Under the pieces are notes generated by a model, which had not been told where the DNA came from, did not search any database, and saw only the letters and a list, made by a program, of their open reading frames with translations. Position numbers and translations under genes: made by a program. This document shows positions 240 through 46,800 of a stretch of 64,000 nt of DNA, one piece after another. This stretch comes from Branchiostoma floridae (lineage: Eukaryota; Chordata; Leptocardii; Amphioxiformes; Branchiostomatidae), in assembly GCF_000003815.2 (NCBI RefSeq), contig NC_049992.1, forward strand, positions 3,963,769-4,027,768, in the 5' to 3' direction. The stretch's first letter is position 1, and every line of letters starts with the position of its first letter.

Positions 240-3200
240 ATGATCTGGCTGTGTGTTATCGCCCAGTTGCTGCCGTCTGCCTTGATGAAGCCTGCCACCA
301 TCACAAACAGGATCACACACAGGTTCAGTCCGGTGAACACGTTATTAAATCTGGTGGACTCTTTCACACCCAGGGCAAGTAGGGCTGGAGTAAACAAACA
401 AACAAACAGGATCACGCACAAGTTCAGTCCTGTGAACACGTTATTAAACCTGGTGGATTCCTTCACACCCAGGGCGAGTAGGGCTGCAGTAAACAAACAA
501 ACAAACAAACAAACAGGATCACACACAGGTTCAGTCCAGTGAACACGTTATTAAACCTGGTGGATTCCTTCACACCCAGGGCGAGTAGGGCTGCAGTAAA
601 CAAACAAACAAACAAACAAACAGGATCACACACAGGTTCAGCCCTGTAAACAGGTAATTAAACCTGGTGGACTCCTTCACACCCAGGGCAAGTAGGGCTG
701 TAGTAAACAAACAAACAAATAAACAGGATCACGCACAGGTTCAGCCCTGTAAACACGTTATTAAATCTGGTGGACTCTTTCACACCCAGGGCGAGTAGGG
801 CTGTAGTAAACAAACAAACAAATAAACAAACAAACAGGATCACACACAGGTTCAGCCCAGTAAACACGTTATTAAACCTGGTGGATTCCTTCACACCCAG
901 GGCAAGGAGGGCTGTAGTAAACAAACAAACAAACAAACAAACAAACAGGATCACACACAGGTTCAGCCCAGTGAACACGTTATTAAATCTGGTGGACTCC
1001 TTCACACCCAGGGCAAGTAGGGCTGCAGTAAACAAACAAATAAACAAACATGATCACACACAGGTTCAGCCCAGTAAACACGTTATTAAATCTGGTGGAC
1101 TCTTTCACACCCAGGGCGAGTAGGGCTGTAGTAAACAAACAAACAAACAAATAAACAAACAGGATCACGCACAGGTTCAGTCCAGTAAACACGTTATTAA
1201 ACCTGGTAGACTCTTTCACACCCAGGGCAAGTAGGGCTGCAATAAACAAACAAACAAACAAACAGGATCACACACAGGTTCAGCCCAGTGAACACGTTAT
1301 TAAACCTGGTGGATTCCTTCACACCCAGGGCAAGTAGGGCTGTAGTAAACAAACAAACAAATAAACAAACAAACAGGATCATGCACAGGTTCAGTCCAGT
1401 GAACACGTTATTAAACCTGGTGGACTCCTTCACACCCAGGGCAAGGAGGGCTGTAGTAAACAAACAAACAAATAAACAAACAAACAGGATCATGCACAGG
1501 TTCAGTCCAGTGAACACGTTATTAAACCTGGTGGATTCCTTCACACCCAGGGCAAGTAGGGCTGTAGTAAACAAACAAACAAATAAACAAACAAACAGGA
1601 TCATGCACAGGTTCAGGCCAGTGAACACGTTATTAAACCTGGTGGATTCCTTCCACCCAGGGCAAGTAGGGCTGTAGTAAACAAACAAACAAACAAATAA
1701 ACAAACAGGATCACGCAAGGTTCAGTCCTAGTGTAAACACTTTATTAAACCTGGTGGACTCTTTCACACCCAGGGCAAGTATATAGGGCTGCAGTAAATA
1801 AAGAAACAATCACTAATGCATTTATCTGGCATTGGAGATTTTTCTTCATGCAGATAAGCAAAGTCACTAACTAATAACCCCACATGTCAGTCAATTGCAC
1901 GGAATCCCCAAATCCCAAACCGGCTTCTACTGACTACTCCCATGGATTATGATATCTTACTGCTGTGTGATCATGACAACTCTGTGTGTTGCACTTTGGA
2001 CTAAATTGTTTCTTTCTCACAAAAACGCATGACTGGAAACCAAGAAGCTGGAACACCTGGTAAGATGTCCTGACATCTTGAGTAAGACTTACAGATTACC
2101 TGTAAGAACCAAGGTGAGTCCTAAGGAGAAGAAGTTGCCTGACATCTTGAGTAAGACTCAAAGATTACCTGTAAGGACCAAGGTGAATCCTAAGGAGAAG
2201 AAGTTGCTTGACATCTTGAGTATGACTGAAATATTACCTGTAAGAACCAAGGTGATTCCTAAGGAGAAGAAGTCGCCTGACATCTTGAGTAAGACCTAAA
2301 GATTACCTGTAAGGACCAGGGTGAGTCCTAAGGAGAAGAAGTCGCCTGACATCTTGAGTAACACTTAAAGATTACCTGTAAGAACCAAGGTGAGTCCTAA
2401 GGAGAAGAAGTTGCCTGACATCTTCAGTAAGAATTCAAGATTACCTGTAAGAACCAAGGTGAGTCCTAAGGAGAAGAAGTCACCTGACATCTTGAGTAAG
2501 ACTCAAAGATTACCTGTAAGGACCAAGGTGAGTCCTAAGGAAAAGAAGTCGTCTGACATCTTGAGTAAGACTTAAATCTTAGCTGTAAGGACCAAGGTGA
2601 GTCCTAAGGAGAAGAACTTGCCTGACATCTTGAGTAAGACTTAAATCTTACCTGTAAGGACCAAGGTGAGTCCTAAGGAGAAGAAGTCGTCTAACATCTT
2701 GAGTAAGACTTATAGATTACCTGTAAGGACCAAGGTGAGTTCTAAGGAGAAGAAGTCGCCTGACATCTTCAGTAAGACTTTAACTAAGATTACCTGTAAG
2801 AACCAAGGTGAGTCCTAAGGAGAAGAAGTCACCTAACATCTAGAGTAAGACTTACAGATTACCTGTAAGGACCAAGGTGAGTCCTAAGGAGAAGAAGTCA
2901 CCTAACATCTAGAGTAAGACTTACAGATTACCTGTAAGGACCAGGGTGAGTCCTAAGGAGAAGAAGTTGCCTGACATCTTGAGTAAGACTTAAATCTTAC
3001 CTGTAAGGACCAAGTGTGAGTCCTAAGGAGAAGAAGTCGCCTCACATCTTGAGTAACACTTAAAGATTACCTGTAAGGACCAAGGTGTGTCCTAAGGAGA
3101 AGAAGTCGCCTGACATCTTGAGTGAGACTTACAGATTACCTGTAAGGACCAAGGTGAGTCCTAAGGAGAAGAAGTCGCCTGACATCTTGAGTAAGACTGT

Positions 3201-4859
3201 AAGATTACCTGTAAGGACCAAGGTGAGTCCTAAGGAGAAGAAGTCGCCTGACATCTTGAGTATGACTAAAAGATTACCTGTAAGGACCAAGGTGAGTCCT
3301 AAGGAGAAGAAGTCGGGGTACTCGGCGAGACCAGACACGTGCATCGCCATGTGAGTCCGCGTCCAGTTCTCGATCCTGTTGCCGACCAGGGAGTCAAAAT
3401 TTGCGCTCCAGGCTCGAGCAACACTCGCCGTGCCTGTAGGATTGACATTTTACTTTAAGTCAATTGACAGGTCATTCATAGCAGAATAGCAGATTGACAA
3501 ATGATACTAGAGCAACTGATGATTAACAAGTTGGTTGACAGGTTCTGGTTATAACACAATTTCAGCCAATCATATGACAGTATGCCAATGATTGCCAAGT
3601 TTATGAAGGTTAGTAATTATAACAGAATAGCAGACCGACCAATGATGTGGCAGTATTGTTATACACTTAGACAACTGACACTTAAGTTGATTGACACCCA
3701 GTTCATATGTAATTTACTGTTACAGCACACTGACCGAATTTTGAACAATCATATGACAGTATGCTGATGATTGACAAGTTTATTGACAGGTTATTTATTA
3801 TATCAGAATACCAGACTGATCAATCATTGACAGTATTGTACAGGCAACTGACAAGTTGATTGACACCCAGGTTACAACAGACCAATGACAGGATTGAATT
3901 TCAGCCAATCATATGACAGTATGATGATTATTGACAGGTTATGACAGAATAGCAGGCTGACCAATGATGTGACAGTATGCTGATGATTGACAAGTTGATT
4001 GACAGGTTATAACAGAAGAGCAGACTGACCTATGACATACTCCAGGATCATATTCCAGCCAATGATGAAGGCCCACAGCTCCCCGACCGTCACGTAGCTG
4101 TAGACGTACGCCGAACCACTTTTCGGCACCCTCGCTCCGAACTCGGCATAACACAGGCCTGGGACAGAAGTTTTTTTTGTTTTTTTTTTAAAGACAATTT
4201 TTATAGATTTTCAAAGAAAAGATACACATACAGACACATGCATGGCACGTAAATCAAAAACAGAAAGACACACGAGACAGAAGTTGGTAAGTCTGGTTGC
4301 TTCAGGGTAAGGGTTAGGGTTCAGAGGTTCAATCATGCCTCATAATCAACATGGTGGCTTTTTAAATCTAGAAAATGACTTGTCTTCTAGTACACACAAA
4401 ATGTTCAGAATCACCCCCCCCCCCCCAACATCTTTCTACGTATGAAACTACTTTATGAAGTATCATATAACAAGGACAATTGAAAAATATTGATTGTCAT
4501 ACCTGCAAATGTATATAGCCACATATCAACTCATTCCCTAGTCTAGATTGTGATACCAATGTTTCAAGGTGGAGTTACTGTTATATGAACAAATGCCTGA
4601 CATGCCACCAACCTGCCAGAATTGACGCAATGGCTGCCACAAGGAACGACAACACGATCGACGGACCGGCCGTTTCCCTGGCAACGGTTCCCGTCAGGAC
4701 GTACACTCCCGCCCCGAGCGTGCTCCCGACACCGAGCAGCGTGAGGTCGAGCGTGTTCAGGCATCGTGCCAGCTGAGAGTCTTCCAGCGACGCAGCGTCC
4801 ACATACTTGCGGCGGAGCAAACGCCCGCCGAAGTTCCGCAAACAGCCGGCAACCGTCAT
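240..4859 (-). CDS. Cationic amino acid transporter (CAT/SLC7A family), 5' four coding exons
   Basis: Multi-exon gene read on the minus strand and truncated by the left window edge. Coding exons are 4613-4865 (ATG at 4857-4859), 4030-4158, 3278-3433 and about 240-384. The first three junctions are GT-AG in phase 1 and the frame closes through all four exons, giving about 225 residues of a protein normally near 600-700. Recognisable CAT sequence in order: [16 protein letters not shown] (first membrane helix of the APC fold), [50 protein letters not shown], then [14 protein letters not shown]. The family moves arginine, lysine or ornithine across the plasma membrane. The exact SLC7A1-4 subgroup is not decided. 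The last donor (near 236-240) is uncertain. Odd: both sides of the intron between the third and fourth exons are filled by arrays carrying copies of the exon edges. Confidence 0.9.
385..1800 (-). repeat. Minisatellite of acceptor plus exon, 14 copies counting the real exon edge
   Basis: Tandem array with unit lengths 99-117 bp, mostly differing by 4 bp steps of a TTTG run. Copies share the junction mark GGGCTG(T/C)AGTAAA, first at 382-384 (the real exon) and last at 1786-1788. Read on the minus strand, each unit is a (TTTG)n tract, an acceptor ending in TACAG or TGCAG, and then about 85 nt of SLC7A exon coding [18 protein letters not shown] and on to CVILF. The unit breaks where exon CTGTTTGTG meets intron (TTTG)n, so the duplication seam is a microhomology. 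The long open frames inside are by-products of the repeat. Confidence 0.92.
2058..3315 (-). repeat. 69-bp minisatellite of exon plus donor, about 18 copies
   Basis: Period is 69 bp (for example 2094 to 2163). On the minus strand each unit carries about 37 nt of exon coding [12 protein letters not shown], the donor ACAG|GTAATCT, and about 32 nt of intron. The authentic donor is the copy at 3276-3278, joined to the rest of the exon ([15 protein letters not shown]). Most copies keep an intact donor; the one near 2578 has lost GT. The 23-residue repeating frames on either strand are spurious consequences of 69 being a multiple of 3. Confidence 0.92.
3440..4029. repeat. Degenerate tandem repeat filling the SLC7A intron between the second and third coding exons
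   Basis: The intron is built almost wholly from degraded copies of a unit of roughly 60-70 bp. Recurring words are TTGACAGGTTAT, ACAGAATAGCAGACTGACC, CAATGATGTGACAGTATG and TGATGATTGACAAG. The copies reach the donor at 4028-4030, where CAGACTGACCTATGAC resembles the repeat word CAGACTGACCAATGAT. A copy also starts within a few bases of the acceptor at 3434. Whether the unit truly includes exon bases is unclear, because only about five could be exonic. Confidence 0.65.
4160..4612. other. Intron after the first SLC7A coding exon, no gene
   Basis: About 450 bp with a poly-T/poly-A stretch near 4171-4190, a short TTAGGG-like run at 4308-4321 and a poly-C tract near 4416-4428. No coding similarity or element end was recognised. 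Confidence 0.6.
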
Positions 4860-4865
4860 TGGCTC

Positions 4866-5560: not shown

Positions 5561-5569
5561 TCTTTGGTT

Positions 5570-6795: not shown

Positions 6796-6806
6796 ATAAT
6801 CTCTCC

Positions 6807-8282: not shown

Positions 8283-8289
8283 GGCAAAG

Positions 8290-10746: not shown

Positions 10747-13700
10747 ATGTGTTTTGAAAGAACTTTGTATGCATTGTTAGTGTTGTTGCTAGTGTGCCAT
10801 CAAGGCTGGGCACAGGAACAGTGCTTCGCAGACGGAACAGCAGAAGAAGAGGAGGAATGCGACTCCACCTCACCTGGCAGGTCTCACCTGACCCCCCACG
10901 ATGATCCCGAACCTGTACCTGACACAGGTGTACCCACTGAGGAGACAGGTAAATGTCCGTGTAGCACCGTTAGATGTACATGTGAGCTATTAAAATCTAA
11001 CACAATACAAGTTACTCAGGTAGCTGCCATATGGAGAGGTTTTCATTCATGATTATCGTTCATGAAAGTCGGGCTTAAACTAACGTTATATCTTCAAATT
11101 AACAAAACTTCTCAAACCTAAAAGGACGAAAAGGTGCACAGATAACACATACTGTTTTCATGATCAGGAACCTTCGCAGGCGTTCGACATATCCAAATCT
11201 ATCAAAACATAAGTTTATTGACATGAAAAAAATTAAAGGATACATCAATGCAGTCCGCCAAAGTCTGTAGTGTACACAGACATTTCGTAGTCGACTAGTA
11301 TATCGTTCATTGTTAAACGTTAACATGTTGTTTTATGTGTAAACAATAGTAGCCTAAACGCACTCACCTTGTGATAAACGTAGGTCAATCTATTTGTATC
11401 TTCTTGTTTGTTGTAGGTATGCATTATACAGTAGATTAAAGTCACTGTACTTTTGTCTATAAAGATTGTGCGAAACATTGTGTTAGAAAACTAAATCGCA
11501 ACGTGATACCCATACAGGATCAGATGTTACTTTACACAATCTTAAACATTTTTATATGCTGAGCAAGGAGCTTACGTACATTAAGTCTGCACTTCCGTTC
11601 CCAGCCGCTAGAGACTGTGTGGAAGTTTACGAGCGCGGGTCCGTCACCAACGGTGTGTACGTCATCAAGCCGCTCTCGTACCCGGGCGACCCGTTCCCAG
11701 TGTACTGTGACATGGAGAATAAGAACGGCGGTTGGACGACAGTTCAGCGGCGACAGGACGGGACAGTGGGTGACGTCATGCATAGATTATTATGTGACAT
11801 CAACTAGACCACGTAATGACACATTGACGTACATTTCTTCTTGGCGTCTGTATGTCACTAGAAAGGCAACATTTAAGCGAAAATGCAGAATGCTTTCCTT
11901 TTGTCAAGTTACATTGAACACAATATTATACCACTAACGCTAGTTCACCTTTATCCGCGGGGTACCCTTTATCCGTTTAAAAGCAGTGTATTTAGGGATA
12001 TAAAATCGACGGACGATAGTTTCAAATTTCAATACATCCAAAATATTACTGATAAAAACCACCGTCCACGGTCTTGAGTATCCGGATTTCCATTAATATG
12101 CTGTTTAAAAAAATGAATATATGATGCCCCGAGGATAAAGGTAAACAAGTTTTATGATATTGGGCTCGCAAACTGTAAGATCTGCTTGTAGATTACTAGT
12201 ACCACTTATGACCCGCGCTGAAGTGTATAGGTGTCATAAAGCATGATCGGTTCCTATAACCATCAAATAAACCACCGAGTGAGCGACTTCAGCAAATCCG
12301 TTCCTGAGGGCTTTTAACCGGACCTGGTAGGAATGCACATTTGTGGCGCTCGTGCCTCTTTCTGAGACATAAAAGGAAAAAAAGTGACGTAACCTTACAT
12401 GTAGGAAACCCCGAAAACTACCTGAAGATCAAACTGAACATTAGCCACAACCCTGCTTGGAGATTTTTTTAAATTCTGATGGACAAATTTTCCAGGTGAA
12501 TTTAATATTATTTTAACCGAACTTGGGAGGAGTGCACATTTGTGGCCCTCGGCATATTGTGGCTCTTTCTGAGTAACAAACGAATTGAAAAAGTACGAAA
12601 CCCCGAAAAATACTAGAATATCAAGCTTCATATTAGCCGCAACCCTGCTTAAATTGAGATTAGTAATTCTGATTGGCAAATTTCCAGGTGGATTTCAACC
12701 GGACCTGGGAGGAGTACCAGCTTGGGTTCGGTGACCTTGAGGGTGAGTTCTGGCTGGGACTGGACAAGCTGCACGCGCTGACCAGCGTAGGGAAGTACAT
12801 CCTGCACCTGGACTTCACTGACTGGGAGGGGGGCCGCGCCTTCACGGAGTACAGCAGCTTCAGAGTGGGAGGGGAGAAGGAGGACTACACCTTACACCTG
12901 TCGGGGTACTTCACAGGTAGCACAGGTGGGGACGCCATGTTGCGTCCCGTGTCGCTGAGCGGCAAGAAGTTCTCTACGCGCGACAGGTGAGCTCTACGGT
13001 CACCTTTTAGGTCTACGTCACCTTTAATCTTTAGTCTTCAAGCAGATCCTACGGTAACAATAAGATAGTATAGAGGCTTCAGTCCTCTGCCAGCTTTTGA
13101 TACTATCTTATGGTACCGTTGGATATGCTGGGAGATTACGTCAAATTTCCAAAGCGGGGCCCGGCCGGACAGCTTTTGGGAACAGAAAGTAGGATACGAA
13201 AGTCGCCAAACTACACAAGACGTAAATAGAATAGTCGTGGGCATCATCTGTGTGTATCTGTACGCATATATTTCTATTTTCACTTCCACAGACAGCCCGG
13301 CCGGGCCCCGGTTTGGAAATGTGACGTTTTTAATGAGCCTTAGTATCGTAGTAGTACGACGGGTGCCCGTCACAGGTGATGCAGTGTACCATCCTGCTAA
13401 AACAAATAAAGTGAAAGTGAATGTGAAAGTATGGTGGTGTCAGAGGTGGTGGCGGCTGGTGGTACTACACGTAATGTTGGTATTGTTGGTAATGTTGGTA
13501 TTGTTGGTAATGTTGGTACCTTTGATACTGTGGTGCCGATGGTACTGATAACTGTTCCCTTCCCTCCAGGGATAATGACGAGTGCGGCTGTAACTGTGCG
13601 TAGAAGTTCGGAGGTGGCGGCTAGTGGTACTGTAGCATTGATGGTACTACGGTACGGTGGTACCAGTGATAATGTGTGGTACTGTTTTTTTCATAGTACA

Positions 13701-14247
13701 AGGATAATGACGAGTGCGGCTGTAACTGTGCGTAGAAGTTCGGAGGTGGCGGCTAGTGGTACGGTAGCATTGATGGTACTACGGTACGCGAAGAAGTTTG
13801 AAGTTGGTGGCTGGTGGTACTAGTATACTGTAGCATTGATTGTACTATGGTACGAGTGGTACTGACAGTGGTACTATTCCCCCCTCTGCAGGGATAATGA
13901 CGAGTGCGGTTGTAACTGCCCAGAGAAGTTCGAAGGTGGTGATTGCCGGTGGTACTTTTGTAATAATATTGATGGTACAGCGGTACCGACTGTATGGTGT
14001 TACCAGCGATAACGATGACTGTTTTCTCCCTTGTAGGGACAATGACGAGTGCGGCTGTAACTGCGCGGAGAAGTTCGGAGGTGGCGGTTGGTGGTACTGG
14101 CGATGCGGGGACTCGTACCTGAACGGGAAGTACCACAACTCCCACAAGTGCGAGACCAAGCAGGGCATCGTCTGGGGCCCCTGGAAACAGTCCTTCAAAC
14201 ACTCGCTCAAGGCAGTCAGCATGAAAATCAGACTTATAGACCTCTGA
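10747..14247 (+). CDS. Secreted fibrinogen-related protein (FReD, ficolin/angiopoietin-like), 290 aa
   Basis: Four exons: 10747-10948, 11605-11765, 12688-12986 and 14037-14247. They join in frame to 291 codons including TGA. Residues 1-22 are a signal peptide (MCFERTLYALLVLLLVCHQG). Residues 23-68 are an acidic, Ser/Thr/Pro-rich linker. From about 69 to the end is a fibrinogen C-terminal domain: ARDCVEVYERG, PVYCDMENKNGGW, TTVQRRQDGT, VDFNRTWEEYQLGFG, GEFWLGLDK, KFSTRDRDND (calcium-loop DxDND type) and WGPWKQSFKHSLK. Such domains bind acetylated or other glycans in lectin-type innate immunity or clotting-like roles. No collagen or coiled-coil stalk is present. Odd: the segment after the calcium loop (DNDECGCNCAEKF) carries extra cysteines compared with typical family members. 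The donor after exon 2 is a weak GTGGGT, chosen because it keeps frame and the DGT-VDF joint. Confidence 0.9.
11940..12149. mobile_element. MITE with TAGTTCACCTTTATCCGCGG ends, intron 2 of the FReD gene
   Basis: Left end TAGTTCACCTTTATCCGCGG, right end GCCCCGAGGATAAAGGTAAAC (mirrored with mismatches). The interior includes ACCGTCCACGGTCTTGAGTA. A second copy at 50542-50758 shares both ends and the interior. Non-coding. Confidence 0.8.
12290..12687 (+). repeat. Duplicated acceptor/exon edges upstream of FReD exon 3
   Basis: The start of exon 3 (AACCGGACCTGGGAGGAG) is preceded by two degraded copies: AACCGGACCTGGTAGGAATG at about 12316 and AACCGAACTTGGGAGGAGTG at about 12515. Both continue with GCACATTTGTGG, which is not in the real exon. 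The second copy keeps a TTTTCCAG acceptor at 12495. Spacing is about 180-200 bp. Words shared between units also include ATTAGCC(A/G)CAACCCTGCTT. Confidence 0.8.
13031..13136. mobile_element. MITE, TCTCCAAGCAG family, short copy
   Basis: TAGTCTTCAAGCAGATCCTA on the left, TGGATATGCTGGGAGATTA on the right, and the family word GATACTATCTTATGG inside. It lies in FReD intron 3. No target duplication recognised. Confidence 0.75.
13143..13324. mobile_element. MITE with GGGCCCGGCCGG terminal repeats
   Basis: Left arm ATTTCCAAAGCGGGGCCCGG with CCGG following; right arm CCGGCCGGGCCCCGGTTTGG followed by AAAT. A diverged copy lies at 56501-56763. Non-coding; within FReD intron 3. Confidence 0.8.
13425..14036 (+). 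repeat. Decoy copies of the acceptor and start of FReD exon 4
   Basis: The real exon edge at 14037 (GGACAATGACGAGTGCGGC) is preceded by copies starting at 13570, 13702 and 13892 (GGATAATGACGAGTGCGG), each followed by about 60 nt of exon-like sequence and GGTACTGTAGCATTGATGG-like intron. Copies 1 and 2 carry an in-frame TAG after TGTGCG. Copy 3 keeps a strong acceptor (CCCCCTCTGCAG) and stays open through about 40 codons. A short GTAATGTTGGTATTGTTG triplet array lies at 13471-13520. Confidence 0.88.
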
Positions 14248-14312
14248 CGTCACGGGGTGCCTGGAAACAGTCCTTCAAACACTCACATAAGGCAGTTAGA
14301 ATGATAATCATT

Positions 14313-21210: not shown

Positions 21211-21432
21211 CGCGGAAAGGGGGAAATCCCTGACCAAAACTCGAAAACCGGGGAGCGAGTCTCCGTGCGCCTCGCTTCCCGCGGACGAAACACAGAATGA
21301 GAGCCCCGGTGTGGTGTGCGGAAGTGTGAAGAGGCAAGGACTGACACGCGGTGACCACGTGGGAGGTCAGACAAAGACCGGAGACGGGGTTGTCGTAAAT
21401 TAATAAAAATGACATCACTGACATTTTTCCAC

Positions 21433-25567: not shown

Positions 25568-25869
25568 TGCCTGCCTGCCTCCCTCCTTCCTTCTTTCCTT
25601 CCTTCCTTCAGGAAAAGTGTTCTCCAGATAAACCACAGTCCTGTGCTTGTTCCCCAGACTGGCAGAGGAAGCTCAGGACTCCAAGCTGCCCGTCGAGTAT
25701 GCTGAGGACATGCGTGGTTTTAGTCATGTCCTCAGCATACTCGACGGGCAGCTTGGAGTCCTGAGCTTCCTCTGCCAGTCTGGGGAACAAGCACAGGACT
25801 GTGGTTTATCTGGAGAACACTTTTCCTGAAGGAAGGAAGGAAAGAAGGAAGGAGGGAGGCAGGCAGGCA
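25568..25869. repeat. Large perfect palindrome, 145-bp arms and 12-bp spacer
   Basis: 25568-25712 is the reverse complement of 25725-25869, with spacer CGTGGTTTTAGT. No mismatch was found by eye. Arms run from a polypyrimidine stretch to GCTGAGGACATG. Identical 60-residue frames on the two strands (LAEEAQDSKLPVEYAEDM) are the same sequence seen twice. It could be a recent inverted duplication or an assembly fold-back. Confidence 0.92.
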
Positions 25870-31800: not shown

Positions 31801-34800
31801 TAATTTGTAGGTTCATTATATCTGGGAAATTCCCCAAGGTCTTTTCCACTAACAGTAACACGATGAAGAGTGGACCACGGCTTAACATCCCGTCCTAAGG
31901 ACTGTAACACAGTCCAGTACTTAGCGTGCATGTTGGGTGAGTGACACAGCCGGAAACTCACAGTCACAGCTTCTACTTTTTCTAGCTAGTTCCAGAGACA
32001 GTGCCACTAACCACTAGACTAGGCTTGTCACCCCCAGTCTAGTTCCACAGCAGCAGGGATGTGTGAGCTATATAGTCATGGTTCATGTTGATGTTGTGAA
32101 AACATTGCACTGCACACAGCTGGCCGACCTCTGACCCCACAGACTAATTGGGGTGTCAGCTGCTGACCTCTGACCTCCTTGAGTGATGAGGATGACAGCC
32201 CCTGCCCTATCAGGTTTCAGTCACACCCCTTCCTGAGATGGGACTGAACTTGGTGTTGTTGACCTGCTGGTTTCTGTTGTTGTTGGGCATCAATTTTAGC
32301 CTGGTATCCAGCCGTAATATAGCGCTTGAGTCTCTTCTCTCCTCTTCGTAACTCTGCTGTCCAGGGCTGTAAATGGTCACTTCCCACAGAGGGGGCCGGC
32401 AGATGTTGGGTGGGCTGCAGCTGCTATAAGCAAGATTTGATCAGGCTAATTAGTGACTAGTTAGTGACCAGATCAGGCTTAGAAGACTAAGGTGGTTCGG
32501 ACATGTAGTAAGAAGACCACCAAACACATTAGTCCGCAAAGCATTCTATTGCGAATTGCGAAGAGGAGAGAAGAGACTCTGGAGTGGAGCTATATTACGG
32601 CTGGATACCAGGCTACATCAAATTACCCTGTGCTAGTTCTGGCTACTTGGTTCTTGGAACACTCAACAGCATAAAATGTGTCCCACCAAAATGTTACTTA
32701 TTCCCATAAGCTCACGTCTAGTTAAGTCTCTGATGTGTACTCTCCAAAGAGAAGTTTGGCTCCAGCTTTGTTTTTATGTGTTTTGGCATTTTATTAGGCT
32801 TCCTATAGTATTATCATAGTTCTGGTTTCAGCTTGAAGAGTACTTCATGTAAGCCTATCAGACCACATGTGTAGCTTCATGAGTCATGACACCCACTTCC
32901 AGGTTTTGGGACAGAAGCACAAAGCAGGAAATACATTAGCAACATGCAGCATGTCCTGTTACCAGTGACACAGTCCTACGTAATAGACTCAACTGTATTG
33001 ACATGGATAATTTTAGGCTTGCAAGAGATGAAGCGAAGCAATGAACAAACATGATTTTGCTCTTTAAAAATTTTTTTTTGTCTTCGACAGACCCCAGAGT
33101 GGGTCGATGATCCTCTACAACAGGAAGAAGGTGAAGTACAGAAAAGACGGCTACAGCTGGAAAAAACGCAAGGATGGCAAAACTACCAGAGAAGATCACA
33201 TGAAGCTCAAAGTACAGGGTGTAGAGGTAAGGTAGCCGAGGTAACAGACTTGGGGCATTCTGGTATTCAAATTGTAACATACGTCAATCTGGTATCCATG
33301 GCAACAGATCAGACTTACATCATTTTGGTATCCATGGGAACAGACTAATGTCTTATATTATTCTGGTATTTATGGACACGGACAATTTTTCTTGTATAAA
33401 ATATAGTAAGAGGTATACTTTTATTAGACATTTTGGTATCCATGGTAATGAACCCATATCACTACTGTAGATATGATATTCTGATATCCTTGACTATAGA
33501 TACATATGATTTTGGAACAGTATCTTATAGTATGGTAACAGACACCAACTCTGAAGAGGTAGCTTCTTTCTGTTATAAGATTGGGGGTCGTTTAGTGTAT
33601 GCATACAATGTACCGTACCATCATCAGGTTCATAAACATCTATGTATATTGACTACTGTTATTTCTCCATGTGTGTGCCTGTATGTCTGTTATGTGAATT
33701 CCTCAGTCATACACAGGTATACAGGTACAAATGTACACAGGTGTTTGTGTAGGTTGTACACATGTATCTCCCCCCACAGTGCCTGTATGGCTCAATGGCT
33801 ATAATGTACATTCCTCTATCATTGTACAGGTACATGTACAGGTGTATACAGGACCAAGTATACAGGTATACAGGTACGGGTGTATGCATATGATGACTGT
33901 TGTTGTTATATCCCCTCCACAGTGCCTGTATGGCTGCTATGTGCATTCCTCTATCGTGCCAACATTCCACAGAAGATGCTACTGGTTGTTGCAGGTATGT
34001 TTGCTCTGTTTCTACACACTGTACATTTACTAATGAGTTCATACCTCTTGTGTTTGTTGTGTAGATCCAGTTAAAGTGTTGGTATACTACCTGAGGCCAC
34101 ACAAATTTATTTTCTTGGTTGGTTCAAACATTTTAGAATAAAGATGAAAATAGAAGGTTGAAATGAAAGATTGCATCTGAGTCTTCATACATGTCACCAC
34201 ACTCCCTGAAACTGTGTATACCAAGGTACAGCCCTCAGTTTTTTTTTAAACCAGCGATGCAACAAATAAAATTGTTTTACCCTGATCATGTTTTAATGTT
34301 TGCTTGTTTGTGTAGAACCCAGATAATGTGTTGGTACACTACCTGAATGCTTGTTTTTTTGTTTGTTTATTTAGAACCCAGATATCGTGTTGTTACACTG
34401 CCTGATAATTTGTTTGTTTATTTCTGTTGTTTGTTTGTTTGCTTGTTTAGAACCCAGATATCGTGTTGGTACATATCTGACCATGTGTTTGTTTGTTTGT
34501 TTGTTTGCTTGATTAGAACCCAGATATCGTGTTGGTACACTACCTGAATGTGCCGACTACTGAGGACTCCAAACCCTCCATCCCCCCAACCATTCCCCTC
34601 CGCATCGACTCACAAGAATGGACAAAGGACGAACTCCTCAAGCAGCTCAAGCCCATGTGTGAGTTATCAAGTGTTCTTTAAAACTATCCACCAAAGATGC
34701 CCCGACTGTGCTTGGTGATAACAAATTCCACTCTACGATACATTTGTAGTTCTGGGAAAGTACTACATGTAGTTAAACAATAAACCTGCCATATATGATA

Positions 34801-37800
34801 ATGCGAGTTCATTCAAGATAGACTACTTAAAATTTGGTTCTAATGTGTTGGTTGTATGAGTCCAAACAGATTCAGAAGTGAGATAAAGAAGATTATATGA
34901 TGATGGAACAGCTTTTGTGACAGTTTATTTTGTTGAAAAAAAAACAACAGTTTTCTAGATAAATGACTTATTCCTGTGTTGATGTTAAAATTTTGTATTT
35001 TTGCTCTTCAGTTGCAGGAGTCAAGGTCGGAAGTAACAACGACGTGGTGAGTACATATTATGGGCTATGTTGCATATTATGGGCTATGTTGCATATTATG
35101 GGCTATGTCACATATTATGGGCTATGTTGCACATTATGGGCTATCATATTACTGGGCTATGTCATCAAAATTGCAGTGAGGGCTAAATCCTGTGCATTAT
35201 GGACTTCATTGCATATCATAATTGCAGTTATATCACATACATTAGGGGGTATATCACAAGACAGTATGGGCTATGTCATATGCATTATGAGTCATGATAT
35301 AACTTATGTTTGTGAAAGTTCAGTTCCCACATGTACAATGTACTTTCTGCATGTGAAAGTCAGTTAGGCTGCAAGAGGGGTCAAAGTATAAGTTATGATT
35401 TCAAAGGGTTTGAAAAATCTGAATAGTTCATCTTACCAAAGGTTGTTATTGTTGAGGCTTAGTGTGTATTTATTTGTTTTGCACACTCACATCCGTTTTG
35501 GGGTTTCCAGAGGATGTCATCCATACAAATTACAATAAAATCAGCTTGACCTTAGTGTATTTATTTGTTTCCCCCGTCCAGAGCGAGACGATTGAGGCAG
35601 TTGTGGAGAAGCTACTGGACAACAAGGCGCCCAAACCCCAGCCTAAGACAGTCACGCACGCCTGCGTCTGTGCTAAGGATGGGGCCGGACCCAAGCAGAA
35701 GTGTGGTCACACTCCCCACCGAATCATCTCGCCCAAGGTCGAGAGTACGCGTTCCGAGATAGACAGTCCTGCGGGCATGGGCGCCGACGTGGTGACCCCC
35801 GACCTCCCGCCGCCCCAGCCCACCGCGCCGACCGTGGTGAACATGATCGGGAAAGTTCCCAACGGACTTGCGACGCGGAATGGCGCGGTGGTTAGCCTGA
35901 ACGGCCTGGCGGGCCCGGGTACAGGCGGCGTTCAGAACGGGATGTTCTCTAGCGGCATCGCGGTGACGGGGATTAGCACGAGTGGTTCGATAGTCAGCGC
36001 AAATCTCTTGTGTGGAGTTCCCGTGCTGCCTGGGTATGCTACAGAGGACCAGCTTTCTACATCCGTCGTCGCCGCCCCCCTCCCCACTGGGATGGTTTCG
36101 ATGGTCCCCCAGTCTTCGCACAACGTCGCCATTTCCACCACGGATGGAGGCAGCGCCATGGTGTTCCAGCACGCGACCGCCACGCAGCCGAACAGCGTCC
36201 CCATGGTTCTAAATGGCATCGCGTCGTCAGCACAGGGTTGGTCCGTGAAGGTTGAAAACGAACTTCCGCCCGCTAGCGCCGCGGCAAACTCGCACAGCCC
36301 AAGCATGAACCACGCCATCAACACAAGATTTCTCTCGTCGCAAGGCTCGTTCGACCTCCCACCATCATCCATGCTGACCATCTACGAGTCCAACGCGCTG
36401 GCGGGCCAGGCTCTTGTCGGCCATGCTCTACCGGGCCAGACGATGGCCGACGCGGCCCCCGTGAGTCGCTACAGTCTGAACCTGGACACGATCCACGGGG
36501 AGGGTCACGCCATGACGGCCCCATCCACCCCCAGTAGGGCGCCGCGCAGCTTCACTGGCGGGGGATACAGCCGCAAGATGGCGCTCGACGCCAAGGGCTT
36601 CGTCAAGCGCAGCAAGAGCCTGGACGAGCAGGTTCTCCAGACGGGTAACCATGGTAACCACGCCCCTCCGAACGGGTTTGTCCTCGAGGGGGCAGGCGTG
36701 GCTCAGGGGGGAGACCGGCAGCTACTCTTTGCTCAGGACATGACAAGTGCAATAGGGGGGGAGGCGGTAGGGGGGTTGAACACTGGCAGTTTCGGAGAAG
36801 GGCTAAACCATCCCTACCCCCCTCCCGACTACAAGACCGCGGTGGCGATGAATGCAGCAGGGACCCGCGACGCCATAGGGTCTCCCACTGTAGTTTCGAG
36901 CGGAGGGGACGGTCAGCTGACCTCACCCCTGAGTGAGACCAACGAGTTTGGTTGTCGTGACATCCTCCTCAGCGGCAGTAGCGTGATCCCGACGGGTCTG
37001 TCGCACGCAAACGGACACCTCTCGCCCCCGCAGAACCTGACCCTTAACCTCAGCTCACTCTCCTCCAACCAGGCGCTCGACAACCTGGACCTGAACACCC
37101 CCACCTCCGACGTGGACCTGTCCAATTTCGACGCGTTCGATAACATCATGTTGGACACACAGCTGTCGGACCTGCTGCCGGAGCTGGAGAACACGGATTC
37201 CAACGACCGTAGCGTCGACCACGGCAACGACCCTTCCGAGAACGGAACGTACGGGCGCTGCGAGAGGTCGGCCCAGAGAAACGAGCTGGTCTGCATCACG
37301 GACTTCTCACCCGAATGGTCGTACCCCGAGGTTTGTTTGTTTCATTTGTTCAGATCTTTACCTTGCATCTGGTACACCTGCCTTAGAAGTTGACCTACCC
37401 AAAGTCACAAGACAGTCAATGACATATACTGAGTCTCCTATTAACTTTGGACATGCACCTACCCGGAACGCAACATTAGAACATAACCTATATCCAAAAT
37501 GCAAAGGACACATATTATAACTAGTATCAAAACATGCAACTTGGACACTTTTTTGCTCTGGGTTGATTAAGATTTTAAATGTGATTTTCTCCTTGATTCT
37601 CAGCCTTAGGGTCTTTGGGTTAAACCATGTCACACTGTAAATTGTAAATTTAACCCCAAGCTATTATCGAGCTTTTATACGATACGGTGTTTTAAAGCTT
37701 AAAGCTCAATATTTGTACACTAACGTTTTAAGCAGTAAGGGAACTTTGATGCTGTCAGTTACCATACAAGCCTTTATGCGTCGCTGTGTTCTTGATCGCC

Positions 37801-40800
37801 GTATCTAAAATAACTACGGTGCACCTTTCGGATTCGATGCCCGGTACGTCCCGATAGCGTACTTACCCACGGGTGAATGTACAGTACAGTTGGACAAAAG
37901 CACTCACACAGATCTTTCTTAAAAAGGTATGAGCTACACAGATCTTTCTTTAAAAAGTATGAGGCTATATACGTTTTAGCATTCGTTAACTTTATAATGA
38001 TATACTATATATTAGATTTTTTTTTTTTAAATTCTGTAACAACTAAATTTGAACTTTCTTACAACGAAATTTCCTCCCATATTAAAGTAGACTGTCCCAT
38101 TGACCGCCGCCATCTTTATTCTAAACATAACATCGTAATGGCAGTCAAAATCCGACGCAAACTGGCCGATTTCGGCACAAAATCGCGCTAGTTATCATCA
38201 AAAATCGATGAAAACCTCAATGTTGAAAATGATGCGGTCGTTATGGGTCCGAATTTAGGCCGGTCGCGGTCGCGTTGGCCAGGTGGTCGTTGAGAAAAGG
38301 TCGCTTAATGCTTACGTCAATGGGAAAAAAAATCGGGACCGAGAAAAAGCGGTCGAAATGGCCAGGTGGTCGCTGAGAAGAGGTGGTCGCTTGGGCAGGT
38401 TTGACTGTATAATTTTCAGGGTTGCTTGGGTTAAACCATTGTCTATTTGCAGGGAGGAGTGAAGATCCTGGTGACAGGCCCGTGGCACTCCAGCACCACG
38501 GTGTACAGCTGTGTGTTTGGGTTGAACCATGTATATTTGCAGGGGGTTTGGTTTAAACCATTATGTATTTGCAGGGGGGAGTGAAGATCCTGGTGACAGG
38601 CCCGTGGCACTCCAGCACCACGGCTGTGTGTTTGGGTTAAACCATGTATATTTGCAGGGGTGTTTGTATTAAACCATTATATATTTGCAGGGAGGAGTGA
38701 AGATCCTGGTGACAGGCCCATGGCACTCCAGCACCACGGCTGTGTGTTTGGGTTAAACCATGTATATTTGCAGGGGTGTTTGGATTAAACCATTATATAT
38801 TTGCAGGGAGGAGTGAAGATCCTGGTGACAGGCCCGTGGCACTCCAGCACCACGGCATACAGCTGTGTGTTTGGGTTAAACCATTATATATTTGCAGGGG
38901 TGTTTGGGTTAAACCATTATATATTTGCAGGGGGGAGTGAAGATCCTGGTGACAGGCCCGTGGCACTCCAGCACCACAGCGTACAGCTGTGTGTTTGATG
39001 ACATCAGCGTCCCTGCCAGCCTGGTGCAGAGTGGGGTCCTCAGATGTTACTGTCCAGGTCAGCACAAAAATGTTGTTTATTTTAGTTGGATCTATATTAG
39101 TATAACAGTGGGGTCTAGGGGTGGCTACCGGTAAAACTGTTTGCTTTTCATGTTGGAGCAGTCTGAGGAAACCAAACTTGTTCAAAATCAGTGGAACGGA
39201 TTTCGGATCAATTAGAAAATGAACAGATTATATCAGCAGGCAGTCCTACGTTTGGGGGCTTATAGTCTGTGTAACACAAACTCCGCTGTCCAGGGCTGTA
39301 ACTGGCCCCTCCCCGGCGGATGTTTGGCGGGCTGCTATAAGCGAGATTTAATCAGGCTAGGGGGCTTAGTGGTGCAATAAAATAACAAGTATCAGTGTTT
39401 GGTAACTGTGGGGTGTTTCCCCAGAGCCCAGAGGTCATGCTACTGATCCTTTACCCTGGGAAAAGGCACTTAATAGGACTTTCCTCACTCCACCTAGGTG
39501 TAAAAATGGGTACTATAAGTAGTATAACAATGACATGACATTGTTTAATTCTATGCAGCCCATGAGACTGGCCTGGTGACCCTTCAGGTCGCGGCGGGCG
39601 GGGTGCCCATCTCCAAGTCTGTCGTGTTTGAGTACCGGACGCGCAGCGTTCTACAGAGCGCCGGCTCACAGCGAGAGTGGCTCTCCCTGGACGGTTTGTT
39701 TACACACACCTATTTCTTTGTCAGTCAAAATTTCAGATTTTTGCAATAATGCTGGACATGAAAATAACTCTGAGGAGGAACTCTATAACTTTGTCACTTA
39801 TAGAATTCATGCTACCGGAAAGGAATGCAGGATGTTAAGCTATGGTTCACTGTTCATTGTACTTGTGGAAAAGAGCCAACATGTGTAATATGCCAAAGTG
39901 GGTTTACAATGGCTATACAGATACAGATACAGGGGAATTAGCCTGCCTTCTCTGTCCCAACCAGTGGAAGAGAACACTTTCTTTAAGAAGGTTTGAGATG
40001 ACTTTCACTGTTTATTTCAGAGCGCCAGTTTAAGATCTCCATCCTGGAGAGATTGGAGCAGCTGGAGAACCGGCTGGGTACCAGGAGGGGGGCGGGGCAA
40101 CAGGACAGCTCTGGACAGGTGAGCATGTGTCTCTCTTGAAGGCTTGTCTTTCTTCTTCTCAGTACCTTCTAGGGTGGTATGGGATCACTCTAGGAATGTT
40201 GCATTGCAAAGTTTTGTTGACTTAGAGAATTTAAGGACAATCTTCTGTCTCTTTATATAACTGTTGATGATAATGATAATATGTCTTTGGTGGGGTGCTG
40301 CATAGTACATATACATGAAAATGTTTATAAGATTATATGCAGTATAGTTATCCACTGTAATGAGGAATTCAAGTATTACTAAGTGAAGTAATGGCAAATG
40401 GATCGACAGGGCCTGTCAATAGTGTCATTGACATGTTGGCAAAGCTAATGTTTTTTTGATTGATTGATTGATTAACAGGCTTCTTGCCATTCCTGGAGCA
40501 TTGACCCGTTGATGTGTGTCAATTTAAGTCAGATGTCATGAATTGATTGGTTGAATGATTTGTTGAATGATTGATTGATTGATTGATTGACAGGGATCTG
40601 GCCAGGGTACCCAGCATTCCCTGGAGGACCGTCTGATCGCGGTGTGCTCCCAGCTGATGACTCGCACCTGGATCAAGCCGGAGGCTGCACTTCCCACCTG
40701 CTCCGCTAGGGGGATGACTCTGCTGCACCTGGCAGCCGCACTGGGCTACAGAAGACTGGCCGAGAAGCTCATGGTCTGGAGGTGAGTAGGGGTGTATTTG

Positions 40801-43800
40801 GTTGTACTTGTACTTTCTGTAGGGCTTTATGGAAAAAAAAATGTACCAAAGCAAACACTGAAATGGTTGGGACTCCATCAGCCTCCTTCGTAGAGTAGAT
40901 CTGCCTACTGCAGCTTCATTGTTTATTCCATGAACAAGGCTGACAGAGTCCCAACTTGTTTAGTGTTCCAGGTTACTAGGTAAGTTATACTTTGTTCAAT
41001 GAAACATGAACATTAACCCAGTGAACACAGATAAACTTTCTTGCTAAGCTGTAGGGCTTTACTTAACCTAACCATACATTTTACTTTAGAGCTATGTATC
41101 ACTGCCTGTGCAGCACATTGCTGTTCTAATATTTTCCTTGTCATCACTGCAGGAGCCAGAGTTCCAGTGTGGTCCTGGAGGTGGAGGTGGACCCACTCAA
41201 TGTTGACCACTTCAACTGCACACCACTGGTAAGGGCATAGGTCATAGTGCAACTGCACACCACTGGTAAGGGCATAGGTCATAGTGCAACTGCACACCAC
41301 TGGTAAGGGCATAGGTCATAGTGCAACTGCACACCACTGGTAAGGGCATAGGTCATAGTGCAACTGCACACCACTGGTAAGGGCATAGGTCATAGTTCCA
41401 CTGCACACCACTGGTAAGGGCAAAGGTCATAGTGCAACTGCACACCACAGGTAAGGGCAAAGGTCATTATTCAACTGCACACCACTGGTAATAAGGGCAT
41501 AGGTTATAGTTGAACTGCACACCACTGGGAAGGGCATAGGTCATTATTGTTTAACTGCACACAGCTGGTAAAGACATAGATCATAGCTCAACTAAGCACC
41601 ACTAGTCATAAGTCAAGGTTTACTAGTGCACAGCCAATAGGATTATAGTTTATAGATTATTGTGCAACTGTACACCAGTTGGTGAGAGACATTCTCTCCC
41701 TTTGACGTCACAAACTGTAATTGTAGATGGTAATTCTGGTTAAATAGTTGGAAATACAGCACTAGCATGTGTGTTCCCTTGGTCTAAGATGTTTAGGACT
41801 ACAACTTGCTAGCCGCCATGCTAGATAGAAACGCTTGGTCAGACATTGTTAATGGCACCTCATATGAGGATGAACTGAACTGACAATTTTTAACAGTCTA
41901 TCCTGTTGCTCTGCAGATGTGGGCCTGTGCCATGGGCCACACCGACACAGCGTACTTCCTGTGCCAGTGGAACCGCGCCGCCCTGACCGTCCCGGACTCC
42001 CTGGGCCGCCTCCCCGCGTCCTTGGCCCGGGCCCGCGGCCACCCCCGCATCGCAGAGGAGCTGGAACTGACCCAACAGGAAGGTCACCTCCCGAGCTTCA
42101 AGCCTCCGCCCGTCCACGCCTCTCCGTTCTCGCCCAGGGGCCTCTCGCTGCCGCTGGGCGCTGGACTCCGGCTGTCCCCGCTTGACCCCGAACACTCTCC
42201 GTCATCCGCCTGCTCCACCCTCAGCTCAGCCTCCCCCAACTCCAGCAACCTCTCACCCAACCAGGAGGCAGCGCAGCGCAAGAGCGCCCCCAGGCTCTCT
42301 CAGGAGGAACTGCACCTCCTTCTGCAGAGGTCCATCTCCCGGATGAACCCCAACATCTTGAACTCCAGCACAAACGTCTTAAACCCCGGCAGCAACGTCT
42401 TAAACTCTAGCACCAATGTCTTAAACCCTAGCAGTAGCATCTTAAACCCTAGCAGCAGCATCTTAAATCCTGGAACCAGCCTCTTAGACCCCAGCCTGGT
42501 GAAGATGGAGACAGAAGAGGCCATGCACACGGATCAGCCGACCTTGTCAGACACCCTGCGAGCCAGGAACCTGCGACAGGCACAAGCCACTGGTAAGGAC
42601 ATAGTTCAACTGTACACCACTAGTAAGGTTATAGGTCATAGTTCAACTGTACACCACTAGTAAGTGCGTAGGTTCAACTGTGCACTACTAAATAAGGGCA
42701 TTGTTCACAAGTCAACTGTACACCAGGACTGATAAGGGCATACTTTTACTAGATTTACAGGGCTGGTAATAGTGAATACATAATCATATATGTTACCTAT
42801 TCTGAATGTTATACTTTAGCATTACCAGTACTGCATGATATGTATCGTTTGAGACCCTTCTGTAAACCGGACCCCAATGTCCACAAGGCCCTTTTTTTCT
42901 GAATGAAATTGGATCCAACTGTTACTTAGATAAATCATGGATTATTGACCTGTACTTGGCTTGTTTGAGCATAGACTAAAAGCGAATTAAAGGTCTTTTG
43001 TTGATAAAACCCTCTTAAAACAGAGGCCATGCAGTACAGTGATGGTGGGTACGATAAAGATTTGGACTCAGCGGAGCTCCCACCATCTCCCCAACACGAC
43101 TCCATCCTATTGCTGGCCGAGCGGATTGTGTCGGCACTCCCGCCTCGATTCGTGGACGATCAGGAGATGTCTGATGAAGACTACTCCTTCCTGGACCACA
43201 CCTACCGAGACGTGACCACGCCAGGTGAGAATCACCTGTAACACACCTGTACAGTGTATACTCACCTGCATACATACATACCTGTACACTCACCTGTAGT
43301 TAGTAATGATCAGGAGATGTCTGATGAAGACTACTCCTTCCTGGACCACACCTACCGAGACGTGACCAGGCCAGGTGAGAATCACTTTTAACACACCTGT
43401 ACAGTGTATACTCACCTGCATACATACGTACCTGTACACTCATCTGTAGTTAGTAATGATCAGGAGATGTCTGATGAGGACTACTCCTTCCTGGACCACA
43501 CCTACCGAAACGTGACCACGCCAGGTGAGAATCACGTGTAACACCTGTACAGCTTACCTGTACAGTATATACTCACCTGCATACATCCATGTACCTGTGC
43601 ACACACCTGTAGCTTGTAAGTTAGCTTGAATTGTCTGTAGTTTGTGGTGCACAGTCAGAAGTTCTTTTGTGGAGTTTTTGTGCACCTCTGTAGTCTGTAG
43701 TTGATGTATAGTTTGTATTGCCTCTTTTTATTTTTAATAATTACACCTTGGTCTCTGGTTTCTAGTGCATTAACTTATATGCATGACAAAATTTAATGTA

Positions 43801-46800
43801 GTTTGTGTTACACCTCTGTATTATGTAATGTACCTCAGACAGTACATGTGTATGTTATGTACCTCAGTCTGCAGTATGTAATGTAAGTTTGCAGTACATG
43901 TATGTAATGTACCTCTGCAGTTTGTAGTGCACTTCTGTATTTTGTAATCTCTAATGCATTTCTAGTTTTTAAAGCACCTGAGAGTCTGTAGTTCGTAATA
44001 TCTGGTGTAAGAGAAAACCAAGAATTTTTTACTCTCCCCCCAGGATCAGTGGACAGTCCCGTTGACCTGGACAGCCCGGATGACCTGCTGGAAGACTTTG
44101 CCATTGACCCCCACGACCCCCCGCCGACCCGGGAGGAGTGGTGCGAGTTCCTGAACGCCTCCGGGCGGGTGACAGAGGAACTGCAGAGCCTCACACTCAC
44201 AGGTAAGGAACCATACAGAACGCCTCCAGGCGGGTGACAGAGGAACTGCAGAGCCTCACACTCACAGGTAAGGAACCATACAGAACGCCTCCAGGCGGGT
44301 GACAGAGGAACTGCAGAGCCTCACCCCCAGCTTTGCAGTTTCTGTTTTCGGTAACATTTTTTTCTAATGCTGAGCTTACAAAACTTTCGACATTGTTTCT
44401 CTATTTATTATTCTTCTGTTATCATGTTATCTGAATATTTAGGAGGTATTCCTTTGACTGGTACATATTGGATAGGGTTAATTTGCCTGAGACAATTTGC
44501 AGTTTCTGCCACACTCATTGCTCCACTACATTTACAGTGGTGTTGCCTCAATGTGCAGCCATTAAACAACATTTTTTACTCAATGTTCCTGTAACCATGG
44601 TGATGTGTTCCCCTGCAGACCAGGAACAGAAGAAGCTGTACCAAGCAGCGGCCGTCATACAGAACGCCTTCCGCCAGTACAAGGTGCATCTAACTTTCAC
44701 TTACATCTGTTACTGTTACATTAATGTCTTAAAGTTAGTGTCATACAGATTATCTTCAGTAAGCCAGGTCAGTCTTCACTTTCATCTCCAATGCCCTATG
44801 TCTTAGTGTCACTAGTACTGTGAACGTCTTCTGCCAGCGTATACATGTATACTGCAAGAAAAATGTTCTATATTCTTTTGAATAACAGTACTTTATTCAC
44901 AAATACATGTTTTTCAAGAGCCAACAGCTTGATGATCATCTGTCATCTCCTTCAGGGCAAAAACGACTGGTTCACTGCAGCCAGGTGTCATTGCTAGCAT
45001 TGAAGTCTCAAAGTTTAACATAAAGTACTGTAACAGTTACAAAACTGCGTACTATATTCTTAAGCAACCTTTATTATCCTATATTGACTTACGATGTTTC
45101 ATGTTTGGAACAGACTGTGACCTGGAAATGTCTCTGGCTGCTTTGTTTGTGTTAACTCTACAATTTTGTTAATACTTTACATTACTTAACTGTTTGTTGT
45201 TTTGTTTCCTGCAGAGTCGCCGGCAGCGTCGGCTGCGTGAGATCGAGGCTGCGATACTGATCCAGAACTACTACAGACGAGTGAGACAAACTTACTTAGT
45301 AATACTAACTAACAAAAAGTAACAAACTTTCTACAGTGTAAGTAACCAAGAAAGTACAGATGCAAGAGACCAACTTACATTGCCAAGTTCTACTATTTTT
45401 TTTCTATATACAGATCTAGAAGAACAGTTTTTTTCATTCATTTTTAGACCTCAGATTTTTTTTAATATAAAAATAGATAAGGCTCTAGTTTCTTACATGA
45501 TGTTCGAAAGCAACTGCAGACATTCTTTGGATAGACGTGCATGTTTCTTGCAAAATTCATTACCCTCCCTATGAAAAAATGCTGTCTTATCCTTGTTGGC
45601 TGTTGGTTCAGTCATAGCTTGCTTGGAAATTCTACAACTCAAATCAAAATTGTATGATAAGCTACGATAAATGTGACTGCAAGCATTGTAATTGAAGTTT
45701 CCCTTCCCAGTATGCCATGTTCAAGAAGATGAATAGGGCGGCCATCTTGATCCAGAGCCGGTTCCGACGCTACTACGAGCAGAAGAGGTTCCGCCAGCTG
45801 TACCGCGCCGCTGTACTCATCCAGAGCTACTTCCGATCCTTTCGCGAACACGAGAGATTCCGGCAGTACCGGCGCGCCGCCATCATTATACAGAAACGGT
45901 TCAGGTGGGTGTTTGGTATAGGTGTCTTGGTTTGTAACTGTGTGTAGTAGCAGTAGTCCACTGTGTCCCTCTATAGTTACACTGTGTGTAACTGTGTACT
46001 ATTTGCATGTATGTGAGACTGTGTGACTGTGTGCATGAGTGTGTGTGTATTAGTGTGAATGCATGTGTGTGTGTGCGTATATTTGTACACGTGTTTGCAT
46101 GCGTGTATGTACATTTGTATGTGTGTGAGTGTGTTTCTCTGCATCTTTGCCATGCATTTGTGTGTCTCTGTGTGTGTGCATGCATGTGAAGGTGAGTTAT
46201 TTGGATGTATCTTTGTTGCAGCTTATGTTAAGAGAAACTGTAACAGTTGTAGTTTGTATTGATAGTACATCAATATTTGTATTGATAGTCTATAGCTGGC
46301 CGAGTAGTATAGGCTTATTTTTGACTTTTGCCATTCTCTGACCTTCATGTCCCCACAGAGGTCACTGCCAACGGAAGAGGCGTCTTCAGGAGATCATGCA
46401 GCAGTACAGACAGAGGTGAGCATCTTAAAGGAACTATTCACAATGTCTTAGATGGACAGTTTACAGTCTTGTAACTCCTATAGTACAGACAGTGTACAAA
46501 TAGTGTCTCAAAAATCCCTTCACAGTATTAAAACGGTTCAGACAAACTTAAAGAAAGTTACTGTAGGAATTTAAAAAAAGGATTGTACAGACAGAACCAG
46601 AACGGGAAAGACTCACACCTTTGTGACACCTACAGAGTACACCTGAAGTCTAACACTGTTTTTTATTGGTTTGACTCTCAGACAGCAAACTGACAGCAGT
46701 AGTAGTCATTTGGTTCACATTTTTCTTATTGTAAACTTTACCCTACAATACATTCAACTTAAAAAAGACCTCATGTGTGTTACTGGTAACAGACTTAATA

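What the first reader, a model, noticed from the sequence alone, without database searches (positions are those of the whole stretch)
240..44330. Splice junctions are tandemly duplicated in about a dozen introns of four genes
In SLC7A, FReD and CAMTA introns, the exon edge with its splice site is repeated in the adjoining intron; the lectin intron 1 and CAMTA intron 7 arrays abut a donor without visible exon bases. Acceptor arrays lie upstream of the exon (SLC7A, FReD exons 3 and 4, CAMTA exons 5, 6, 9). Donor arrays lie downstream (SLC7A, CAMTA exons 13, 14, 15, 16). Generic minisatellites would not target exon edges. In several cases the seam is a short match between exon and intron, for example CTGTTTGTG with (TTTG)n and TGTGTGTTTG with GGTGTTTG, which suggests replication slippage or microhomology-mediated duplication. 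I recall 'mirage' minisatellites of this kind at the lancelet Adh locus; the density across one 64-kb window may still be undescribed.
Basis: partly seen in the sequence, partly recalled or inferred. Interest (0 to 1): 0.92.

Follow-up and report, generated by a model that had tools for sequence, protein, structure and literature searches.

The report
Lancelet splice-junction repeat arrays (mirages)
In this stretch of what is probably lancelet DNA, ends of exons with their splice sites have been copied in tandem into the neighbouring introns, making rows of decoy splice sites; the phenomenon already has a name, but this stretch is unusually rich in it and one array suggests that copies descend from the working exon.

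Summary
Of 56 modelled splice edges in four genes, 10 (9 introns of SLC7A, FReD, CAMTA) have a local copy with at least 16 exon bases (p<1e-6 each); one SLC7A intron holds 18 donor and 14 acceptor copies. These are 'mirages', described in amphioxus Adh3, globin and PGBD5 genes (PMC3087553, PMC3902484). The window is rich: 10/56 edges against 4/267 around fetched myosin, ABC and kinesin exons (Fisher p=7e-6). Targeting of exon edges is not shown: 8 junction-spanning duplications against 1.6 expected here (post hoc), 2 against 1.6 outside once two whole-exon duplications are set aside. Of 48 decoy choices tested, 45 bring a stop codon, so decoys must be skipped. In the SLC7A acceptor array, variants shared by copies are 10 synonymous to 1 nonsynonymous (neutral 30%, p=5e-5), single-copy variants 3 to 4, as if copies were seeded through the selected exon; the SLC7A donor array does not show this. 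The CAMTA exon-13 donor array has a homologue at the exon-14 donor. Best reading: tandem duplication across splice edges, tolerated through exon definition, in a local hotspot.

The parts
303..1788 (-). SLC7A exon D acceptor array: 13 decoy copies (units 99-117 bp, about 82 exon nt each) upstream of the real acceptor at 384/385
240..384 (-). SLC7A exon D
2069..3315 (-). SLC7A exon C donor array: 18 copies counting the real donor (3277/3278), 17 with GT and one with CT; 69-bp unit with about 38 exon nt
3278..3433 (-). SLC7A exon C
3478..4035 (-). SLC7A exon B donor: degenerate array starting at the donor (6 exon nt)
   Evidence: p=0.0084, weak
12291..12650 (+). FReD exon 3 acceptor: decayed copies (one best match; a second seen by eye and as a 192-bp repeat)
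   Evidence: p=5e-7
13567..13960 (+). FReD exon 4 acceptor: three decoy copies, two with an in-frame TAG
23562..23903 (+). SUEL-lectin intron 1: 42-bp array, 8 copies, starting just after the donor; no exon copy
33768..33830 (+). CAMTA exon 5 acceptor: one decoy
34064..34510 (+). CAMTA exon 6 acceptor: four decoys, most in a TTTG-rich array
35053..35144 (+). CAMTA intron 7: 19-bp array starting just after the donor; no exon copy
38412..38930 (+). CAMTA exon 9 acceptor array: four decoys
41211..41603 (+). CAMTA exon 13 donor array: 37-bp unit, about 10 copies, 16-18 nt of ankyrin-coding exon in each
42572..42788 (+). CAMTA exon 14 donor: degenerate array homologous to the exon 13 array
43158..43619 (+). 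CAMTA exon 15 donor array: 150-bp unit, real donor plus two decoys
44153..44324 (+). CAMTA exon 16 donor array: 65-bp unit, one full decoy and a partial third copy

Best explanation
The arrays are mirages: tandem duplications whose unit happens to span a splice edge. Step 1 (inferred): slippage or unequal exchange duplicates 37-150 bp across an edge; this locus has an elevated rate of such events. Step 2 (inferred from splicing knowledge): the duplication is tolerated because exon definition pairs the exon-proximal donor or acceptor with the other end of its short exon, so the extra sites stay in the intron. Step 3 (supported mainly by one array here): new copies keep descending from, or being converted by, the working exon end, then drift freely; such an array stores the exon's past synonymous states. 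Step 4 (one case here, direction inferred): a copy can come to lie at another splice edge, as at CAMTA exon 14. No function of the arrays is required.
For: 10 of 56 edges carry copies. The window is rich in tandem clusters of all kinds: 36 in 64 kb (0.56/kb) against 34 in 215.7 kb (0.158/kb). 45 of 48 decoy choices tested, from 8 of the 10 edges, bring a stop codon; only SLC7A donors 2 and 3 and acceptor -1 stay open. Position rather than strength marks the real site: two SLC7A donor decoys (10.2 against 7.8) and all four CAMTA 6 acceptor decoys (4.5-6.4 against 3.1) score above it. In the SLC7A acceptor array shared variants are 10 S:1 N (p=4.9e-5) and one-copy variants 3 S:4 N, as expected if shared states passed through the selected exon and private ones did not. 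Kinesin C2:31967915: shared 4 S:0 N, single 3 S:1 N. Summed by hand over the nine arrays: shared 20 S:7 N, single 17 S:23 N. The exon part is less diverse than the intron part in 4 of 6 arrays. The exon 13 array aligns to the sequence after the exon 14 donor at score 164 against a maximum of 44 in 200 shuffles. PMC3087553 reports globin RT-PCR and Adh3 data that mirages do not disturb splicing.
Against: I saw the synonymous pattern by eye before testing it, and the p is uncorrected; three of the ten shared S states are sites where the real exon differs from most copies. The SLC7A donor array is neutral (shared 2 S:1 N, single 1 S:5 N), and CAMTA 6, 9, 13 and 16 and FReD 4 each have one shared N; the signal rests mostly on one acceptor array and the kinesin. 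SLC7A acceptor copies show no gradient of identity to the exon with distance (74-79 of 82), so simple growth from the exon end is not enough. Exon and intron parts are about equally diverse in SLC7A D and CAMTA 13. Splicing was not measured here.
Confidence: 0.62

Rival explanations
1. Exon edges are true hotspots: a process tied to transcription or splicing (R-loops, nucleosome edge, pyrimidine tract slippage) breaks or slips DNA at splice sites.
For: Window: 8 junction-spanning duplications against 1.62 expected, 0 of 1719 rotations as high. Genome pattern: CAGGTAAGT pairs at offset 34-64 give 298 matches against 8 for the reversed motif, with singles 6660 against 4814.
Against: Outside sample 2 against 1.59 expected without whole-exon duplications; window chosen post hoc; any-copy null P=0.24. 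Of the 100 listed pattern rows (of 298) 70 lie in 31 loci with the 50/51-bp spacing of an interspersed family (letters were shown for only the first 27 rows); without them 6 loci against 1 control locus in the same span, p=0.13. An exon copy decays more slowly, which alone can inflate the count up to about twofold (inference).
Confidence: 0.25
2. The copies are functional alternative exon ends, kept by selection on the protein.
For: Shared variants in the SLC7A acceptor array are mostly synonymous; three decoys would add 23, 46 or 33 residues in frame.
Against: 45 of 48 decoy choices tested bring stops; unit lengths do not keep frame; one-copy variants are neutral; two of three FReD exon 4 decoys carry TAG.
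Confidence: 0.06
3. Assembly artefact: collapsed or falsely expanded repeats.
For: One assembly only.
Against: Most SLC7A copies differ from each other; mirages at other loci were checked with trace or resequencing data in PMC3087553 and PMC3902484 (passages read).
Confidence: 0.05

Closest known systems
Amphioxus 'mirages' (Adh3, Canestro 2002, not held, known to me from recall and from its citation in PMC3087553; globins BflGb6 and BflGb9, PMC3087553; PGBD5, PMC3902484)
   Same: Minisatellite-like tandem duplication of intron/exon boundaries, donor or acceptor side, units about 10-160 bp, many copies with splice signals.
   Different: Here 9 introns of three genes within 44 kb, one intron with both a donor and an acceptor array, and one array with a homologue at another exon's donor.
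Intron gain by tandem duplication (Rogers model and the mirage-based model of Fig. 7, as told in section 16 of PMC3087553)
   Same: Duplicated AG/GT sites that could define new intron borders.
   Different: No gained intron is shown here; a 12-nt match between exon 14 tail and exon 15 head is reached by 7.5% of shuffles.
Ordinary intronic minisatellites
   Same: Tandem units, length variation between units, exchange along the array.
   Different: Units contain coding sequence and a splice site.

Membership tests
Amphioxus mirage | Tandem repeat whose unit spans an exon/intron boundary | tested here: met
   10 of 56 edges, p<1e-6
Amphioxus mirage | Host is a cephalochordate | tested here: inconclusive
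   Genome of 513 Mb in 431 contigs fits Branchiostoma floridae by recall; contigs are unnamed
Amphioxus mirage | Repeats do not disturb normal splicing | not testable with these tools
   No RNA data; 45 of 48 decoy choices tested would bring stops
Amphioxus mirage | Copy number varies between alleles or cells | not testable with these tools
   No second haplotype found with a 71-bp probe
Intron gain by tandem duplication | A new intron bounded by duplicated exon sequence | tested here: inconclusive
   Exon 13-type array at the exon 14 donor; exon 14/15 match not significant; no other species to compare

The most novel reading that the evidence does not exclude
In lancelets a working exon end is a continuing donor of sequence: it reseeds the decoy array beside it, so that the array archives the exon's past synonymous states, and array copies can be carried to another edge of the same gene and supply its splice donor (CAMTA exon 13 to exon 14), a direct route by which splice borders are replaced.
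Probability: 0.25. Interest if true: 0.7.

Novelty: new member of a known kind. Interest (0 to 1): 0.42.

Why it matters
Mirages are a natural experiment on how the spliceosome picks one of many near-identical sites and on how splice borders are gained. Here 17 donors with GT and 14 acceptors lie in one intron, and the arrays allow selected and neutral descent of the same coding sequence to be compared side by side. The phenomenon itself is not new.

Tried and rejected
A full genome-wide enrichment scan was not possible: the genome gives no file and letters are limited. The HMM tables for Fibrinogen_C, AA_permease_2 and Pkinase held mostly single long open matches or few rows and were not screened systematically for mirages; the kinesin table gave one by eye. 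Genome pattern counts for tandem donors looked 37-fold above control, but 31 of the 37 loci among the 100 listed rows have the 50/51-bp spacing of an interspersed family (family membership of rows shown without letters rests on spacing alone); the remaining 6 against 1 is not significant. A second haplotype was sought with one 71-bp probe and not found. Homology of introns 13 and 14 beyond the arrays: score 36, shuffled maximum 40, rejected. In one search the CAMTA 13 and FReD 4 splice scores were set in the wrong register and are not used. Papers: what searches listed (searches list only a part) holds no genome-wide survey of mirages; Canestro 2002 is not held. PMC2206037 passages mention tandem repeats in the huntingtin scaffolds, not splice-edge copies.

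Of the 134 kinesin rows 58 were used; the decoy rows at C2:31967610 and 31967761 were left out of the exon list. Together 157 exons gave 273 edges (motif score at least 3), 267 testable. L001-L008 and L069-L072 were not used. CAMTA 5 and FReD 3 are not in the S/N tally, and FReD not.
Full report
Setting. The window is C14:3963769-4027768 of a 513-Mb genome in 431 contigs, which by recall fits Branchiostoma floridae. I modelled 56 splice edges; the joined 20 CAMTA exons are open in frame.

Observation. Each edge (40 exon + 12 intron bases) was aligned to up to 900 bp of its own intron against 400 shuffles. Ten of 56 edges have p<1e-6 with 16-40 exon bases copied. The SLC7A C-D intron begins with 18 donor copies counting the real one (69-bp unit, 17 with GT) and ends with 14 acceptor copies counting the real one (99-117 bp units). 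By a matrix built from these 56 edges, most copies in SLC7A C and D and CAMTA 5, 9, 15 and 16 score about as the real site; two SLC7A donor decoys score above it (10.2 against 7.8), and in CAMTA 6 the real acceptor scores lowest of five. Four further edges are weak and two arrays only abut a donor.

Is it more than chance? The copies are. Their placement at edges is less clear. Because the exon must continue from one copy only, the null I hold fair is the chance that a point lies in the terminal copy of an array. In the window 8 of 56 edges pass an ungapped test (at least 12 exon and 6 intron bases) against 2.3-2.4% per point (9, 7 and 6 of 56 at other cut-offs), 1.62 expected (p=2.9e-4), 0 of 1719 rotations as high; with the any-copy null P=0.24. 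In 215.7 kb around 157 myosin, ABC and kinesin exons the same test gives 4 of 273 (5 at one other cut-off); two of the 4 are whole-exon duplications in an ABC cluster on C13, leaving 2 against 1.59 expected. With the gapped test the window has 10 of 56 and the sample 4 of 267 (2 without that cluster), Fisher p=7e-6 with the 4. So the window is a cluster; targeting is not shown. The sample edges were placed by motif and may be some bases off, myosin paralogues are not independent, and three families are not a random draw of genes.

What the decoys would do. Using a decoy changes the protein: 45 of 48 choices tested, from 8 of the 10 edges, bring a stop; SLC7A donors 2 and 3 and acceptor -1 would add 23, 46 and 33 residues. 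Decoys must be skipped or their transcripts lost. PMC3087553 (section 16 read) says that Adh3 and globin data suggest mirages do not disturb splicing. Exon definition is my inferred reason: only the exon-proximal site is near the other end of the short exon.

Descent of copies. In the SLC7A acceptor array (13 copies) variants shared by two or more copies are 10 synonymous to 1 nonsynonymous, neutral expectation 30%, p=4.9e-5; variants of one copy are 3 to 4. I saw this by eye first, so the p is not corrected; three of the ten are sites where the real exon differs from most copies. Translation of the copies cannot explain it (stops, frames). The simple reading is that shared states arose in, or passed through, the selected exon and private ones did not. 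The donor array of the same intron is neutral. Over nine arrays (summed by hand) shared variants are 20 S:7 N and single ones 17 S:23 N. Exon parts are less diverse than intron parts in 4 of 6 arrays and not in SLC7A D and CAMTA 13. Identity to the exon shows no gradient with distance, so exchange along the array is needed.

A shared unit. The CAMTA exon 13 donor array is homologous to the sequence after the exon 14 donor (score 164, maximum of 200 shuffles 44; 176 with the exon 14 tail), and this is the only match among 14 arrays that is not a simple TTTG repeat and stands clear of the rest. The unit contains the ankyrin-coding end of exon 13 (...FNCTPL), so the direction exon 13 to exon 14 is likely (inference). 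Homology beyond the arrays is not significant.

Genome-wide hints. CAGGTAAGT occurs 6660 times against 4814 for its reversal and is paired at offset 34-64 in 298 against 8 cases, but 31 of the 37 loci among the 100 listed pairs have the spacing of one interspersed family; the rest, 6 loci against 1, gives p=0.13. Among the first 100 listed single sites, groups on C1 near 222, 547 and 1448 kb look like further donor arrays; they were not read.

Known or new. The kind is known: mirages (PMC3087553: abstract, passages and section 16 read; PMC3902484: passages read). The kinesin at C2:31967915 (two acceptor decoys) and a myosin donor at C9:19886285 (36-bp copy, 86 bp apart) I did not see in the passages that I read. 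New here, as far as the listed searches show, are the counts, the synonymous pattern and the shared unit.

Noticed in passing
G000:C2:31967610-31968130 (L077): Kinesin exon with two acceptor-side mirage copies 151-154 bp apart, visible already in the HMM table; variants against the real exon 7 synonymous to 1 nonsynonymous.
   Followed up: yes
G000:C13:3143301-3160164 (within L039-L062): Repeated whole exons (about 110 aa) of an ABC transporter membrane domain, 0.5-2.4 kb apart, about 78-89% identical in the long matches: tandem exon or gene duplication.
   Followed up: partly
31 of 37 listed loci on C1-C5, e.g. G000:C3:7451737 and 7453215: Interspersed repeat with a 51-bp sub-unit that contains the donor motif CAGGTAAGT, often on opposite strands 1-1.5 kb apart, as in the inverted ends of a mobile element (rows without letters assigned by spacing).
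   Followed up: partly
G000:C1:222125-222439, C1:547434-547844, C1:1448264-1448468: Regularly spaced CAGGTAAGT sites (32-36 and 83, 134, and 98 bp), possible further donor mirages; not read.
   Followed up: no
window 17018-21366: Long open frames on the minus strand that look like a retroelement with reverse transcriptase and tyrosine recombinase (by eye and recall, not tested).
   Followed up: no
window 57135-58526: C2H2-type zinc-finger open frame of 463 aa on the minus strand with repeated finger units (by eye).
   Followed up: no
window about 24275-24450 and about 25600-25860: Two large inverted repeats near the lectin gene, seen by eye.
   Followed up: no
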